Shown here: piece by piece, positions 18,131 to 27,362 of the stretch
How the letters are laid out: each line of letters opens with the position of its first letter
Position numbering within the stretch: the stretch's first letter is position 1
DNA from: Woeseiaceae bacterium
GTDB lineage: Bacteria; Pseudomonadota; Gammaproteobacteria; Steroidobacterales; Woeseiaceae
NCBI GenBank assembly: GCA_030065985.1
Contig: JASJCM010000002.1
Span: 1 to 64,000 of the forward strand
Reading direction: 5' to 3'
Length of the DNA: 64,000 bases
Position numbers and translations under genes: made by a program
The notes under the pieces: generated by a model
What the model was told of the DNA's origin: nothing
The model's database searches: none
The model's input: only the letters and a program-made list of their open reading frames with translations

Positions 18131-18215
18131 CCCTCAGAAAACGCTCGGGAAACCCTCAGCAACCACTTGCGACGTTTGTCGTATAGTGAGAGTTACACAG
18201 CGTCGGAGAGTCGTC

Positions 18216-21200
18216 ATGCTGAAGAATTCCAGGCTTTTCGCTATCGCCCTGCTCGTTTTCGCGGGTTCCGCCGTCGGTCAGGACTACGTGCCCGACGAGC
18301 TCGCTGGCTGGCAGGATTGGGTACTTAAAGATCACGAGTATCGTGGTTGCCCGTTCTATTTCGACCGGGGCCCATCCGGGAGAGGGGATTATGTCTGCTC
18401 CTGGCCAAGCCGCTTGCAACTTGATGTCACGTCGGCTGGCGGTCGCTTCTCGCAGCAATGGACTGTGTATGGCGACGCACAATGGATCGTTTTGCCCGGC
18501 AACACCGAGCACTGGCCCGACCGCGTTACCGTCGACGGCCGCCAGGTCGAGGTCGTCGCGCGTAAGAGTCTTCCAAGCGTTCGACTCGATCCGGGTTCGT
18601 ACCGGGTAGCCGGCCGTTTCGTGTGGGATGAGCGCCCCGGAGTCCTGGCACTGCCGCACAAGAGCGCGCTTCTGACGCTGAGCGTCGACGGCAAGAGGGT
18701 GGAGCGCCCGGACTTCTCGGGTAGCGGCGTTTTCCTTGGCGAACGGCAGCGCGATACGCGCGCCGTCGATTCTGTGCGGCTGGTTGTCTATCGCCTGATC
18801 GCTGATGACGTACCGATGCGCATGCTGACGCAGCTGGAGGTCGACGTATCCGGTGCCGTTCGTGAGGAGCTTTTTGGTCCCGCATTGCCCGACGGTTTCA
18901 TACCGATTTCGCTACACAGCGAACTGCCGGCCAAACTCGAGGCGGACGGCAATCTGCGCTTGCAGGTGCGGCCCGGTCGCTGGGTTGTTCGACTGGCTGC
19001 GCGAGCGGAAGGTGTCCTTGATGACATCACGGCTGTGACTAGCGGCACGAATATGCCCGCAGAGGAAATCTGGAGCTATCGTGCCGACGATCAGCTGCGG
19101 GTTACTGCCGCCGAAGGACTGCCACCGGTTGACCCGATGCAGGTTGATGTTCCGCGGCAATGGCAGGAACTGCCGGCATTCAGGGTTGCATCGGGTGAGA
19201 GCCTGTCAATCGTCGAGCGCAGTCGAGGCGTCGTGTCTGCAAGCAACGAGTTGTGGCTGCAGCGCACGATGTGGCTTGACTTTGCAGGCGACGGCTTCGT
19301 CGTCGAGGACAACATAATCGGGCGGATGCGAGCCGACTGGCGCCTCGACATGAGTGGGCCGTACGCCTTGCTCGCGGCTTCCGAAGCTGAGGAAGATCTC
19401 CTGATTACCCGAGGTGATGAGGAGGGCAAGACCGGCATCGAGGTTCGCCAGAGCGATGTCGACATCGCGGCGCTCGGGCGTAGCGAGACTCGCGGCTCGA
19501 TGCCCGTGACGGGTTGGGATGCACGCTTCGGCCGGGTTAACGCCATTCTGAACTTGCCGCCAGGCAACAAGCTGCTGACGGCGCCAGGTGTCGACAGTGC
19601 CAATGGCAGCTGGACCGGCCAATGGCAATTGCTCGATTTCTTCCTTGTTCTGATCATCACTATCGCGGTTTGGCGGCTCTTCAACCCGGTTTCGGGAATT
19701 ATTGCGTTACTCGCATTGGTCCTGAGTTTCCACGAGTTTTATGCGCCCACCTGGCTGTGGCTCAACGTGCTTGCGGCGATCGCGCTCCTGCGTGTGACGC
19801 CGGAGGGCAGATTGCGCAGATGGGTGCGCAGCTACCAGCTGGTCAGCGCCGCATTGCTCGTGATCGCACTCATACCGTTCGTAGCAGGGCAGCTCACCAA
19901 TGCGATCTACCCACAGTTAGAGCCACAGTACCCCCGTGCAGGCCTGCTTTCTCCTGTCGTTAGCGCACCTGCAGATGAAGCACGGCAAGCGGAACTGAGC
20001 CTGCAGAGGGCGGCGAAGCCCCAGGTCTCAACGGCGGAACCGATGCTTGAAGAGATCATCGTTACCGCCGCAAAAGGGGCACCGGCGCCGTTCGCACGCT
20101 ACGCGCCAAATGCCATTGTGCAGGCCGGTCAGGGCATTCCGTCGTGGCGCTGGAATAGCTACGTCCTCGAATGGAGTGGACCCGTCGATGAAGAACAGGC
20201 TATGCGCCTGGTGATTCTGCCGCGATGGTTGGTCACGACACTGCGATTCGTGCAGGTCGTCCTGCTGTTGATATTCGCGGGCATCGTTGCCGCCGAGATC
20301 CTGAATCGGCAGTGGCGCATACCGGGTGGCCTCAAGCTCGGGCGCAGCCCGGCGACGAGCGTTTTGGCCGCAGGCGTCTGCGCATCGCTGTTGACGATCG
20401 GAGCTCCTGCCGAGGCCGAGATGCCGAGCAAGGAGTTGCTGCAACAGCTTGAACAGCGCTTGCTCGAGCCTCCCGACTGCGTGCCACGCTGCGCTGAGAT
20501 CGTGGCAGCCAGTGTCGATGTGGGTGATGCAGCGATCAGCATGACGTTGAACGTGCATGCGCACGAAAATGTTGCTGTGCCGCTGCCCGGCACACTTCGC
20601 GGCTGGTATCCGCAAGTAACCGCTGTCGATGGCGATTCAGATGCGCGTGTGTTCCGGGACCAGGGTTCGCGCCTGTGGTTGTACGTGACGCAAGGCATGC
20701 ACAGCGTGAGCTTACGCGGTGCAATTCCGGCGGCGGACAGCCTTGAGATCCCGTTTGCGGCGCCGCCAAGGGTGATCAATGTAAACAGTGACGGGTGGTT
20801 CGTCGCAGGCATCAGGGATCGGCGCCTGCTTTCCGGTTCGCTGCAGCTGACGCGACTTCAGGTGGAGGACGGTGGCGATACCGTACGCTGGGAAAGCAGC
20901 AGGTTCCCGCCCTTCGTGACGGTTCGGCGAACCGTTGAGCTTGAACTCGACTGGCGTGTGCGAACAACGGTGGAACGAGTCGCACCGCTGCAGGGCGCCT
21001 TGACGATTGAGCTGCCGTTGGTCGACGGCGAAGACATCGTCAGCGGTGATTTCACGGTCCGCGACGGTACCGTCCTCGTGTCGATGAATCCGCAGCAGGA
21101 AGAAGTGAGCTGGACGTCGAACCTGCCGCGCAAATCGCCACTTACGCTGACGGCTGGCGACGGTTCGCTGTGGTCCGAGCGCTGGCGTGTTGCGGTTGGG

Positions 21201-22253
21201 AGTTCCTGGAACGCCGTCTTTGAAGGCTTACCCGAAAGCAATACAGGTGCCGAGTTCGCGGATGTGCGTGTTGCGGAATTTGATCCGCGAGCTGGCGAAT
21301 CCCTGACGCTGACGGCCACTCGGCCAGAAGCGGCAGAGGGCAATACGCTCGCGTTCGATGCGGTTGATCTACAGGTCAACCAGGGAGACCGGAGTGCCGA
21401 CGTTGCGCTGCAGCTCGACTATCGCAGTACGCGCGGGGCACAACATGTCATACGCCTGCCTGACGGTATTGAAGTCAGACGGGTTGCAATCGATGGAGCC
21501 GAGCAAACCCTGCGAGCGGAAGCCGGTGAACTCACGCTGCCAATTCTGCCCGGTGAGCACCAGGTCGCCATTACGTGGCGCGCAACGGAGGACTCTGGCT
21601 GGCGCACGACGACACCGAATGTGGATCTTGGCGCACCGGCGAGCAACATAGAGCTTGGTATCGTGATGCCGAAGAATCGTTGGGTTCTCGGAGCATTCGG
21701 ACCGAAGCTCGGTCCAGCCGTCATGTACTGGTCGGAGCTCGCCGCGATGATTTTGTTCGCGTTGATTCTCGGTCGCATCGGGCTGACACCACTCTCGACG
21801 CGGCACTGGCTGCTGCTCGGCCTCGGCTTCAGTACGTTCAGTTGGGGGATGCTGGCGATTGTCGTCATCTGGCTCGTCGCTTGTGGCGCTCGCGAGAAGC
21901 TGAAGTCAGACGAACTCAGCTGGTGGCAATTCGACTTCGTGCAAATCGTTATCGGTGGTCTGACCGTCATCGCGCTCTTGGGCATCATCTCTGCTTTGCC
22001 GCAGGGGTTGCTCGGCACGCCGGACATGCACGTTGCTGGTCACGGTTCGTATGGCAACGACCTGAACTGGTTTGCGGATAGAAGCGATTCAGTGCTACCG
22101 GGTGCGTCCGTGTTGACCGTGCCCTTGTGGGTGTACAAGACGTTGATTCTGGCCTGGGCGCTGTGGCTCAGCTTCGCATTGCTGCGCTGGTTGCCTTGGG
22201 TGTGGCAGTGCTTCAGCAGTGACGGATTCTGGCGCAAGCGGGTGCGGGGATAG
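18216..22253 (+). CDS. Very large membrane protein of unknown function, possible two-part fusion
   Basis: I do not recognise this 1345-residue protein. It opens with a signal peptide (LFAIALLVFAGSAVGQ) and a long beta-rich extracytoplasmic region to about residue 465. Two to three membrane helices follow (about 470-565), a short loop carrying LEEIIVTAAKG near residue 611, another helix (about 670-695), then an internal signal-peptide-like stretch with SVLAAGVCASLLTIGAPAEA near 715-738. A second beta-rich extracytoplasmic region follows to about 1165, and about four C-terminal helices end the protein. This architecture reads as two similar precursors joined. The EEIIVTA sequence resembles the N-terminal signature of TonB-dependent receptors, but no plug or barrel is present. 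It leads a block with a DUF2238 gene and a hydrolase. Confidence 0.75.
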   Translation: MLKNSRLFAIALLVFAGSAVGQDYVPDELAGWQDWVLKDHEYRGCPFYFDRGPSGRGDYVCSWPSRLQLDVTSAGGRFSQQWTVYGDAQWIVLPGNTEHWPDRVTVDGRQVEVVARKSLPSVRLDPGSYRVAGRFVWDERPGVLALPHKSALLTLSVDGKRVERPDFSGSGVFLGERQRDTRAVDSVRLVVYRLIADDVPMRMLTQLEVDVSGAVREELFGPALPDGFIPISLHSELPAKLEADGNLRLQVRPGRWVVRLAARAEGVLDDITAVTSGTNMPAEEIWSYRADDQLRVTAAEGLPPVDPMQVDVPRQWQELPAFRVASGESLSIVERSRGVVSASNELWLQRTMWLDFAGDGFVVEDNIIGRMRADWRLDMSGPYALLAASEAEEDLLITRGDEEGKTGIEVRQSDVDIAALGRSETRGSMPVTGWDARFGRVNAILNLPPGNKLLTAPGVDSANGSWTGQWQLLDFFLVLIITIAVWRLFNPVSGIIALLALVLSFHEFYAPTWLWLNVLAAIALLRVTPEGRLRRWVRSYQLVSAALLVIALIPFVAGQLTNAIYPQLEPQYPRAGLLSPVVSAPADEARQAELSLQRAAKPQVSTAEPMLEEIIVTAAKGAPAPFARYAPNAIVQAGQGIPSWRWNSYVLEWSGPVDEEQAMRLVILPRWLVTTLRFVQVVLLLIFAGIVAAEILNRQWRIPGGLKLGRSPATSVLAAGVCASLLTIGAPAEAEMPSKELLQQLEQRLLEPPDCVPRCAEIVAASVDVGDAAISMTLNVHAHENVAVPLPGTLRGWYPQVTAVDGDSDARVFRDQGSRLWLYVTQGMHSVSLRGAIPAADSLEIPFAAPPRVINVNSDGWFVAGIRDRRLLSGSLQLTRLQVEDGGDTVRWESSRFPPFVTVRRTVELELDWRVRTTVERVAPLQGALTIELPLVDGEDIVSGDFTVRDGTVLVSMNPQQEEVSWTSNLPRKSPLTLTAGDGSLWSERWRVAVGSSWNAVFEGLPESNTGAEFADVRVAEFDPRAGESLTLTATRPEAAEGNTLAFDAVDLQVNQGDRSADVALQLDYRSTRGAQHVIRLPDGIEVRRVAIDGAEQTLRAEAGELTLPILPGEHQVAITWRATEDSGWRTTTPNVDLGAPASNIELGIVMPKNRWVLGAFGPKLGPAVMYWSELAAMILFALILGRIGLTPLSTRHWLLLGLGFSTFSWGMLAIVVIWLVACGAREKLKSDELSWWQFDFVQIVIGGLTVIALLGIISALPQGLLGTPDMHVAGHGSYGNDLNWFADRSDSVLPGASVLTVPLWVYKTLILAWALWLSFALLRWLPWVWQCFSSDGFWRKRVRG

Positions 22254-22255
22254 AC

Positions 22256-22864
22256 TTGCGGCTCGGCTGGATCACAATCTTCCTGGGTGTCCTGATCTGG
22301 TCCGGCATCGGTCCAAGGGACTTCATGACCTGGTGTCTCGAGGTTTCACCGGCCGTAATCGGTGGTGTCGTCCTGTGGTTTACGCGTGAGCGATTCCCGC
22401 TAACCGCGATGACCTACACGCTCATCCTGATCCACTGCGTGATCCTGATGGTCGGCGGTCACTATACCTACGCCGAAGTTCCTGTCGGTGAGTGGTTTCA
22501 GGAGACGTTCGATGGCACCCGCAATAATTACGACAAGCTGGGCCATTTCGTTCAGGGCTTTGTTCCGGCGATCATCACCCGCGAAATCATGGTCAGGCTC
22601 AGGGTGTTCAACTCCGTGCGCTGGCGCGATTTCTTTATTGTCAGCTTCTGCCTTGGTTTCAGTGCGTTCTATGAGTTGATCGAGTGGTGGGTGGCATTAC
22701 TCTCCGAAGAAGCCGCTGCGAGCTTTCTCGGCACACAGGGCTACGCGTGGGACACGCAATCCGACATGGGTTGGGCGTTGTTCGGCGCGGTGCTCGCGCT
22801 GTTGCTGTTGAGCCGCTGGCATGACCGGCAGATGCTTGAACGTGGATTCGTCAAAGGAGTCTGA
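22256..22864 (+). CDS. DUF2238 family membrane protein (YjdF-like)
   Basis: 202-residue integral membrane protein with about six helices. The family pattern is visible in YDKLGHFVQGFVPAIITREIMVR, SAFYELIEWWVALLS and GYAWDTQSDMGWALFGA, with conserved His, Glu and Asp in or near the membrane. TTG start 2 bases after the large membrane gene, with GGGGA just upstream, so the pair is probably translationally linked. Function unknown; the polar membrane residues suggest an enzyme or transporter. Confidence 0.87.
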   Translation: MRLGWITIFLGVLIWSGIGPRDFMTWCLEVSPAVIGGVVLWFTRERFPLTAMTYTLILIHCVILMVGGHYTYAEVPVGEWFQETFDGTRNNYDKLGHFVQGFVPAIITREIMVRLRVFNSVRWRDFFIVSFCLGFSAFYELIEWWVALLSEEAAASFLGTQGYAWDTQSDMGWALFGAVLALLLLSRWHDRQMLERGFVKGV

Positions 22865-22870
22865 GCTATT

Positions 22871-23581
22871 GTGAAGCGTGTAATCGTTGCTGGTTGTTTG
22901 CTGTCGTTTGCCGGGGTAGTACAGGCGAGCGAGTGCGTCGTGCTGCTGCACGGTCTCATCCGTTCCTCGACCGCGATGAACAAGATGCAGCGCGAACTCG
23001 ACGATGCCGGGTTCTTGACCGCGAACATCGATTATCCGTCGCGCGAGTACACGATCGAGGAGCTGGCGGATATGGCCGTTCCCGCCGGGTTAAAGGAATG
23101 TCGTAGTCACGAGAACGTCGAGCGGATTCACTTCGTGACGCATTCGCTCGGCGGGATCCTCGTGCGCCAGTACCTGAGTACTAACGAAATCCCGGAGCTC
23201 GGGCGCGTGGTCATGCTTGGGCCGCCGAACCAGGGCAGCATGGCGGCCGACGATATGGGCGGTGTGCCGGGATTCGAGTGGCTCAATGGTCCAGCCGGAC
23301 GACAGCTGGGCAAAGGCGATGACAGCCTGCCGCTCAAACTCGGTCCGGCCAATTTCGAGGTTGGCATCATCGCTGGTAATCGCACGATCGACCCGATCAC
23401 GTCGGCTGTTCTCGATAATCCGGATGACGGTCGTGTCTCGGTTGAAGATACCAAGCTCGAAGGGATGACGGACTTCATCGTCGTCGAGCACTCGCATGCC
23501 TTCATGATGCGCATGCGCCGACCGATCGAATTGACGATACACTTCCTGAAGAACGGCAATTTCGAACTCTCCGATGAATAA
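22871..23581 (+). CDS. Alpha/beta hydrolase, secreted lipase-like
   Basis: 236-residue serine hydrolase with a signal peptide (MKRVIVAGCLLSFAGVVQAS). CVVLLHGLIRSS is the oxyanion strand-loop, THSLGG the nucleophile elbow, PNQGS a lipase-type loop, and VEHSHAFMM holds the likely catalytic His. The PGAP1/triacylglycerol-lipase group is the nearest match. GTG start, 6 bases after the DUF2238 gene. It probably acts in the periplasm on an ester substrate. Confidence 0.85.
   Translation: MKRVIVAGCLLSFAGVVQASECVVLLHGLIRSSTAMNKMQRELDDAGFLTANIDYPSREYTIEELADMAVPAGLKECRSHENVERIHFVTHSLGGILVRQYLSTNEIPELGRVVMLGPPNQGSMAADDMGGVPGFEWLNGPAGRQLGKGDDSLPLKLGPANFEVGIIAGNRTIDPITSAVLDNPDDGRVSVEDTKLEGMTDFIVVEHSHAFMMRMRRPIELTIHFLKNGNFELSDE

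Positions 23582-25310: not shown

Positions 25311-27362
<2,052 letters not shown>

What the first reader, a model, noticed from the sequence alone, without database searches (positions are those of the whole stretch)
18216..22253. 1345-residue membrane protein that looks like two precursors fused
It has a normal N-terminal signal, a beta-rich domain and membrane helices, then near residues 715-738 a second signal-peptide-like segment ending in PAEAE, followed by another beta-rich domain and four helices. I know no family with this layout. The internal segment may be a membrane anchor or a cleaved signal producing two proteins.
Basis: partly seen in the sequence, partly recalled or inferred. 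Interest (0 to 1): 0.6.

Follow-up and report, generated by a model that had tools for sequence, protein, structure and literature searches.

The report
Bacterial two-in-one membrane protein precursor
One bacterial gene appears to make a long chain with a second export signal in its middle, so that it can be cut into two related membrane proteins whose outer parts have the fold of a protein that animals and yeast use when attaching sugars to proteins.

Summary
P0001 (18216-22253, 1345 aa) has no significant Pfam, NCBIfam, PADLOC or PDB sequence match, yet relatives occur in 38 of 274 sampled genomes of its class (own included), 32 of them with both halves in one frame. Three results support 'two precursors fused'. 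(1) Residues 697-734 look like a signal peptide: within ten residues before the mature C-half, 31 of 34 aligned sequences have [AVST]xA (elsewhere mean 5.8, maximum 30 inside a conserved helix), while the segment itself is nearly as variable (17% mean pairwise identity) as the N-terminal signal (19%). (2) The halves are homologous (profile E 4.6e-15; reversed and shuffled controls 0.04-0.8) and share one layout. (3) One genome, G032, carries the halves as separate genes on different contigs, the C-half gene with its own signal. Models of both halves best match the OST chains I take for Ost1/ribophorin I, and the M1-aminopeptidase N-terminal domain. None of the 38 carriers has STT3, so a glycosylation role is unsupported. 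Most likely signal peptidase I cuts at A734|E735, giving two equimolar subunits that stay paired in the inner membrane. Cleavage, pairing and function were not tested.

The parts
18205..18209 (+). Shine-Dalgarno-like GGAGA
   Evidence: sequence
18216..22253 (+). gene of the 1345-aa precursor (P0001)
   Evidence: dN/dS 0.11 against the 80% identical relative L214
18216..18278 (+). N-terminal signal peptide, residues 1-21 (likely AVG|Q)
   Evidence: sequence; cut site inferred
18399..19610 (+). N-half periplasmic beta domains (A about 62-180, DN1-like 185-336, DN2-like 341-465)
   Evidence: model; fold matches; domain limits approximate, domain A hardly tested
19629..19907 (+). N-half four-helix membrane bundle, residues 472-564
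19923..20105 (+). variable periplasmic linker 570-630 (14% mean pairwise identity)
20148..20219 (+). strands closing the N-half DN2-like domain, residues 645-668
   Evidence: M1 matches span 341-668; inference from ranges
20223..20306 (+). N-half fifth helix, residues 670-697, leading into the cytoplasm
   Evidence: direction inferred
20307..20417 (+). internal signal-peptide-like segment, residues 698-734: basic n-region, h-region 712-730, AEA at 732-734
20418..22250 (+). predicted mature C-half, residues 735-1345 (cut A734|E735)
   Evidence: motif; split gene L035; cut inferred
20493..21698 (+). C-half periplasmic beta domains, residues 760-1161
   Evidence: fold matches
21726..22013 (+). 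C-half four-helix membrane bundle, residues 1171-1266
22059..22124 (+). strands closing the C-half DN2-like domain, residues 1282-1303
   Evidence: M1 matches span local 330-592; inference from ranges
22125..22217 (+). C-half fifth helix, residues 1304-1334, then basic tail
22256..22864 (+). downstream DUF2238 protein; follows in 6 of 9 same-genus loci with flanks
22871..23581 (+). downstream alpha/beta-hydrolase (lipase-like); follows in 6 of 9 same-genus loci with flanks

Best explanation
P0001 is a bacterial polyprotein. Shown here: two homologous membrane-protein precursors are fused head to tail, and the second keeps a signal-peptide-like segment at residues 697-734. Inferred: the N-half is exported by its N-terminal signal, threads five helices and reaches the cytoplasm; the internal signal re-opens export for the second periplasmic domain; signal peptidase I cuts at A734|E735; two equimolar inner-membrane subunits result, which stay together as a pseudo-symmetric heterodimer. 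The cut signal would stay on the end of the N-half as a sixth helix unless it is trimmed; in the split genome G032 the N-half lacks it. Each subunit presents a row of ribophorin-I/M1N-like beta sandwiches to the periplasm on a five-helix anchor whose four-helix bundle is inserted into the last sandwich. With no catalytic domain found, the most likely job is a non-catalytic platform that holds an exported polypeptide or partner enzyme at the membrane; that last step is a guess from the fold.
For: Motif: in 10 residues before P737, [AVST]xA in 31 of 34 rows, AxA in 24; elsewhere mean 5.8 and 2.3. The three misses (L025, L029, L037) have LRA|Q at the site or TYA / VSA further upstream before a longer linker. 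n+h region 17% mean pairwise identity, N-terminal signal 19%, membrane parts 28-49%, mature C-half start 48%. Halves homologous: hhalign E 4.6e-15 over 479 columns; rerun 1.5e-14, beta parts alone 1.5e-13, reversed 0.12 and 0.24, six shuffles 0.037-0.83; the N profile alone finds the C half in 23 of 33 carriers of one family at E 1e-9 to 7e-4. Natural split: G032 has N-half (L036:6443-8584, ending just after helix 5) and C-half (L035:5852-7909, own signal ending LTYAES) as separate genes on two contigs. No in-frame ATG, GTG or TTG at residues 690-716 of P0001, so no internal initiation there. Models of mean pLDDT 81.2 and 86.7 with one layout. dN/dS 0.11.
Against: Cleavage is predicted, not measured. 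The motif count is only just the highest: two conserved helices (ends near 526 and 1322) reach 29-30 of 34 for the loose motif, and the second has AxA in 27 of 34, more than the 24 here. The wider-window count of 34 of 34 leans on rows with insertions. The linker is as variable (14%), so variability alone is not proof. In the four close pairs compared, the internal segment is better kept than the N-terminal signal (identity 0.77 against 0.57, 0.46/0.33, 0.59/0.24, 0.41/0.29). Net charge before the h-region is 0 in 4 of 34. In other homologues an in-frame ATG occurs in the n-region in 14 of 34 and a start with a Shine-Dalgarno-like stretch in 2 of 34. One clear split among 93 carriers, in a draft genome of a family otherwise fused: it looks like a secondary fission. 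The C profile finds the N half in only 2 of 25 carriers. Helix parts of the halves show no profile similarity (E 0.17). pTM about 0.5, so domain orientation is unknown. No heterodimer was modelled.
Confidence: 0.72

Rival explanations
1. The internal segment is not cut: it is an extra membrane helix that returns the chain to the periplasm, and the protein works as one 11-helix chain with two similar periplasmic parts.
For: Most carriers keep one chain: 80 of 93 have a single long frame. The topology works either way. The segment is hydrophobic enough for a helix. Among close relatives it is better kept than the N-terminal signal.
Against: Over the whole family it is at 17% against 28-49% for the helix parts, and what is kept is the small residues of a cleavage motif. 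In G032 the halves persist as separate chains.
Confidence: 0.22
2. It is a bacterial member of the ribophorin I family, a helper of a protein glycosyltransferase.
For: Chains of OST entries, which I take for Ost1/RPN1 (recalled), are the top Foldseek hits of both halves (E 1.3e-7 and 8.9e-9) and rank first or tie for first by VIA Z (11.7 tied with M1; 15.8); domain order followed by a helix agrees.
Against: No STT3 in the 38 carriers (5 of 274 genomes have it), although with so few STT3 genomes about one at most was expected by chance, so the absence only shows that STT3 is not needed; Ribophorin_I model finds nothing in 7 carrier genomes; OST alignments have rmsd of 15-25 A, so only single domains superpose. 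O-linked transferases were not tested.
Confidence: 0.1
3. The fusion is ordinary and the halves are unrelated beta-plus-helix proteins joined by chance.
For: No BLASTP similarity between halves; helix parts show no profile similarity.
Against: Profile homology with clean controls, matching domain by domain, same order of strands and helices.
Confidence: 0.03

Closest known systems
Ribophorin I / Ost1 (OST subunit, PF04597)
   Same: M1N-like beta domains followed by a membrane helix; best fold match of both halves. The tool names only the OST entries; that the chains are Ost1/RPN1 is recalled and fits their lengths. PMC7226087 (passages) describes two similar luminal beta domains in Ost1.
   Different: No sequence match; extra N-terminal beta domain; four helices inserted in the last domain; two copies in one chain; no STT3 in the 38 carriers.
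M1 aminopeptidase N-terminal domain (PF17900)
   Same: Last beta domain of each half: Z 11.7, 143 residues, 3.2 A (N, 3q7j_A) and Z 14.5, 151 residues, 3.1 A (C, 4qhp).
   Different: No sequence-profile link to 24 M1 N-terminal stretches (best E 0.038); no peptidase domain found; a helix bundle interrupts the domain.
Bradyrhizobium FbcH, cytochrome b/c1 precursor cut at an internal signal peptide (recalled; not seen in the listings)
   Same: One bacterial gene, a polytopic first part, an internal signal, two membrane subunits.
   Different: There the two products are unrelated respiratory subunits of known function; here they are duplicates of unknown function.
CreD (PF06123)
   Same: Inner-membrane protein with a periplasmic part and helices (recalled).
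   Different: No Pfam match; no profile similarity to 20 CreD sequences; of 23 CreD genomes and 38 carriers in the same 274, six have both.

Membership tests
Ribophorin I (PF04597) | sequence match to the family model | tested here: not met
   0 families for P0001, not among members' matches; 0 of 7 carrier genomes at E 10
Ribophorin I (PF04597) | two M1N-like luminal beta domains followed by a membrane helix | tested here: met
   fold level only; extra domain and inserted helices differ; chain identity recalled
Ribophorin I (PF04597) | works with an STT3-type transferase | tested here: not met
   STT3 in 5 of 274 class genomes, in none of the 38 carriers; some genomes incomplete
M1 aminopeptidase | N-terminal saddle beta domain | tested here: met
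   fold level only; no sequence link
M1 aminopeptidase | zinc peptidase domain | tested here: not met
   no such Pfam match in P0001 or in the 35+35 member halves
Polyprotein cut at an internal signal peptide | internal hydrophobic run with small -3/-1 residues, kept in type while letters vary | tested here: met
   31 of 34 at the site, basic loop absent (net charge 0) in 4 of 34
Polyprotein cut at an internal signal peptide | halves exist as separate precursors elsewhere | tested here: met
   one genome, G032
Polyprotein cut at an internal signal peptide | cleavage by signal peptidase I | not testable with these tools
   needs protein work
CreD | sequence match to PF06123 | tested here: not met
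   hhalign E 0.041 to 0.55

The most novel reading that the evidence does not exclude
A widespread, unnamed proteobacterial family is a self-paired polyprotein whose two products are true prokaryotic relatives of ribophorin I/Ost1, giving a possible source for a eukaryotic glycosylation subunit without a known prokaryotic homologue, and an ancestral role of that fold at the Sec exit site that does not need N-glycosylation.
Probability: 0.12. Interest if true: 0.85.

Novelty: new variant of a known kind. Interest (0 to 1): 0.62.

Why it matters
Bacterial polyproteins cut at an internal signal peptide are rare exceptions (recalled: FbcH). Here the arrangement is kept in one long frame in about 80 genomes, with one natural split as a control, in a family that Pfam and NCBIfam do not hold. 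It gives a ready system to ask why cells make two duplicate membrane subunits from one chain (fixed ratio, paired insertion). The fold link to ribophorin I bears on an open question: PMC4973528 (passages read) reports that BLASTP found no prokaryotic sequence similar to the non-catalytic OST subunits and that profile searches gave no promising candidates.

Tried and rejected
Sequence searches gave nothing significant: Pfam for P0001 none, NCBIfam one hit at E 0.22, member halves in Pfam only single-member weak hits (31, 32; best E 0.0016, CemA, in one of 35), in NCBIfam none, PADLOC none, PDB by sequence only E 0.24 or worse. Profile homology to M1N and CreD was looked for and not seen. STT3 does not accompany the gene. 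Neighbourhood: over 31 loci (window included; in one, L058, the script lost the focal gene) no neighbour family is in more than 9, that one being ABC ATPases, and the rest in 4 or fewer. Only within the genus do Uup (9 of 9 loci with flanks), DUF2238 (6 of 9) and a lipase (6 of 9) stay alongside (79; L249 repeats L031 and is counted once). Frame breaks near residue 760 in G232 and G623 were suspected as programmed shifts or splits; they look like simple indels, and no second signal precedes the C frame. Breaks near residue 575 in G640 and G605 (73) were not examined. Of 93 carriers have a single frame of 1300 aa or more (in judged by frame length), 1 is split, and 12 are incomplete or frame-broken, most at contig ends; not all 12 were looked at. 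Internal initiation: no start codon at residues 690-716 of P0001; an ATG at 736 with a purine run before it exists, but would give a C-half without a signal, and residue 736 varies. A wider check of 55 C-half loci (45) used a loose pattern: 47 were anchored, 46 passed, 6 were not anchored, 2 had no long frame; I give it little weight, as some passing motifs lie in the preceding helix. The TonB-box-like EEIIVT in the linker is in 1 of 34 and was dropped. Papers: searches found none; others gave listings (in several only the first 12 to 15 rows of more); no paper on this family or on the Bradyrhizobium case was seen in them; passages only were read in PMC4973528 and PMC7226087.
Full report
THE OBSERVATION. 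An intact frame of 1345 codons lies at 18216-22253, with GGAGA at 18205-18209 before the ATG. A Kyte-Doolittle scan finds the N-terminal signal, helices around 470-560 and 678-696, the segment 712-734, and helices from 1168 to the end. The models refine this: N-half helices 472-488, 491-504, 512-527, 532-564 and 670-697; C-half helices, counted in P0001, 1171-1187, 1195-1206, 1210-1228, 1236-1266 and 1304-1334. Each half therefore has five helices after its beta part. The alternation of sides fits the basic stretches after helix 3 and helix 5 of each half, and leaves the internal segment running outwards from the cytoplasm, as a signal peptide must (inference).

DISTRIBUTION. The gene is single in its own genome, whose completeness is estimated at 84%. 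Relatives, own genome counted, are in 38 of 274 genomes of the class, in 25 of 299 of a phylum-wide draw with the C-half profile, in 33 of 42 of the family of G032 and in 32 of 60 close relatives. Named carriers are two Woeseiaceae MAGs, another gammaproteobacterial MAG, Teredinibacter waterburyi, and Azoarcus sp. KH32C, where it is a 'hypothetical protein' on a large plasmid. Over there are 93 different carrier genomes: 80 have one frame of 1300 aa or more (in the presence of the N-half is judged by frame length or), 1 has separate genes, 12 are incomplete or frame-broken, most at contig ends, not all examined. Against the nearest relative compared (80% identity) dN/dS is 0.11 overall, 0.07-0.14 in the parts other than the N-terminal signal (0.41); dS is near or above 1 in most parts, so these are rough.

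THE INTERNAL SEGMENT. The alignment has 34 rows: P0001 and 33 loci (L028 was left out because its frame is broken; L033 and other partial loci were not used). Within ten residues before the position of P737, [AVST]xA is present in 31 of 34 and AxA in 24; at 1269 other positions the means are 5.8 and 2.3, the maxima 30 and 27, both in the conserved fifth helix of the C half. The three misses have a leucine at -3 (L025) or a signal that ends further upstream, before a longer linker (L029 TYA, L037 VSA). In 15-column windows, which let insertions in, all 34 pass and no other place reaches 33. The true N-terminal signal gives 14 strict and 21 loose of 34 by such a window, partly because its position varies. 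The contrast in rates matters more: the n- and h-region (697-731) has a mean pairwise identity of 0.17, the N-terminal signal 0.19, the linker 0.14, the helix parts 0.28-0.49, the residues just after the predicted cut 0.48. So hydrophobicity and a peptidase motif are kept while the letters are not, as in a signal peptide. Against this, in four close pairs the internal segment is somewhat better kept than the N-terminal signal, so some of it may have a further role, for example as a helix that remains on the N-half.

A NATURAL SPLIT. G032 carries the N-half as a 713-aa gene (L036:6443-8584) that stops right after helix 5 (WRRTT), and the C-half as a 685-aa gene on another contig (L035:5852-7909, minus strand) that starts with its own signal (LTYAES). 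Both have open frames of other genes on either side. The assembly is a draft, but a wrong join would hardly make a stop and a new signal-bearing start. As 28 of 33 carriers of its family have one long frame, I read it as a late fission. The frame breaks examined in G232 and G623 are not of this kind.

THE HALVES ARE RELATED. hhalign of the 35-row alignments A1 and A2 gives probability 98.4, E 4.6e-15, 479 columns, 17% identity. My rerun gives 1.5e-14; beta parts alone 1.5e-13; reversed 0.12 (whole) and 0.24 (beta parts); six shuffles 0.037 to 0.83; helix parts alone 0.17, that is, no signal. Domain by domain the matching pairs are A-A 6.8e-10, DN1-DN1 6.7e-5, DN2-DN2 1.6e-5; some unlike pairs are also better than the CreD and M1N comparisons (N_A with C_DN2 7.3e-6, C_A with C_DN2 8.9e-6, N_DN1 with C_A 2e-4), others are not (0.004 to 0.13), so the beta domains of a half may themselves be repeats. 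As an outside check, the N profile alone finds the C half in 23 of 33 carriers; the C profile finds the N half in 2 of 25.

THE FOLD. Models: N-half mean pLDDT 81.2, pTM 0.52; C-half 86.7, pTM 0.50. Foldseek puts chains of OST entries first for both (N: the four best rows, 6ezn_A E 1.3e-7; C: the seven best rows, 6c26_1 E 8.9e-9), then M1 aminopeptidases, integrins and others. The tool names the entries only; that these chains are Ost1 or RPN1 is recalled and fits their lengths. VIA: N, OST chains and M1 tie at Z 11.7; C, 8agb_E Z 15.8 over 307 residues, M1 4qhp Z 14.5 over 151 residues at 3.1 A. The OST alignments have rmsd of 15-25 A over two domains, so they show domain order and not a shared overall shape. 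Ranges for M1 run from about 341 to 668 (N) and 330 to 592 (C, local) with only about 150 residues aligned, which means that the four-helix bundle sits inside this domain and the strands after it close it; this is inference from ranges and strand lists. The first beta domain of each half was hardly tested by these searches.

FUNCTION. Nothing here shows it. No peptidase domain was found, no STT3 in the 38 carriers (with STT3 in only 5 of 274 genomes this shows that it is not needed, not that the two avoid each other), no general neighbour. Within the genus the order Uup (divergent), this gene, DUF2238, lipase-like gene is common. [quoted passage not shown] a holding platform is the natural guess for a non-catalytic pair with this fold.

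VERDICT. It is a new, unnamed family and a conserved bacterial case of two duplicate precursors in one chain. Known in kind: internal signal peptides, M1N/ribophorin fold. New in this form: the duplicate pair, the inserted helix bundle, the breadth of conservation. No paper on the family appeared in the rows listed (searches found none), which cover open-access papers only.

Noticed in passing
window 20049-20069 (residues 612-618): EEIIVTA, like the TonB-box/plug start of outer-membrane receptors (motif recalled), in the variable periplasmic linker; EE[IV][IV]VT is found in 1 of 34 sequences.
   Followed up: partly
L039 about 2470; L243 about 3320: Two draft genomes (G232, G623) have a frame break at nearly the same place, about residue 760, just after the CxxxC of the C half; both look like small indels.
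   Followed up: partly
G593 contigs C278 and C166: Two C-half-like copies, one incomplete, in one genome of the G032 family: possible paralogue or pseudogene.
   Followed up: no
L213 5911-10005: In Azoarcus sp. KH32C the gene lies on a 738-kb plasmid near a replication initiation gene and overlaps an isoaspartyl peptidase gene by four bases.
   Followed up: no
P0001 C45, C61 and C755, C759: Each half begins with two cysteines that are invariant in the 35-row alignments, a likely disulfide in each mature subunit.
   Followed up: no
window 25311-27353: Old-yellow-enzyme/FadH-type flavoprotein; best NCBIfam models are mycofactocin-system, bile-acid and bilirubin reductase types, all below their cut-offs.
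   Followed up: no
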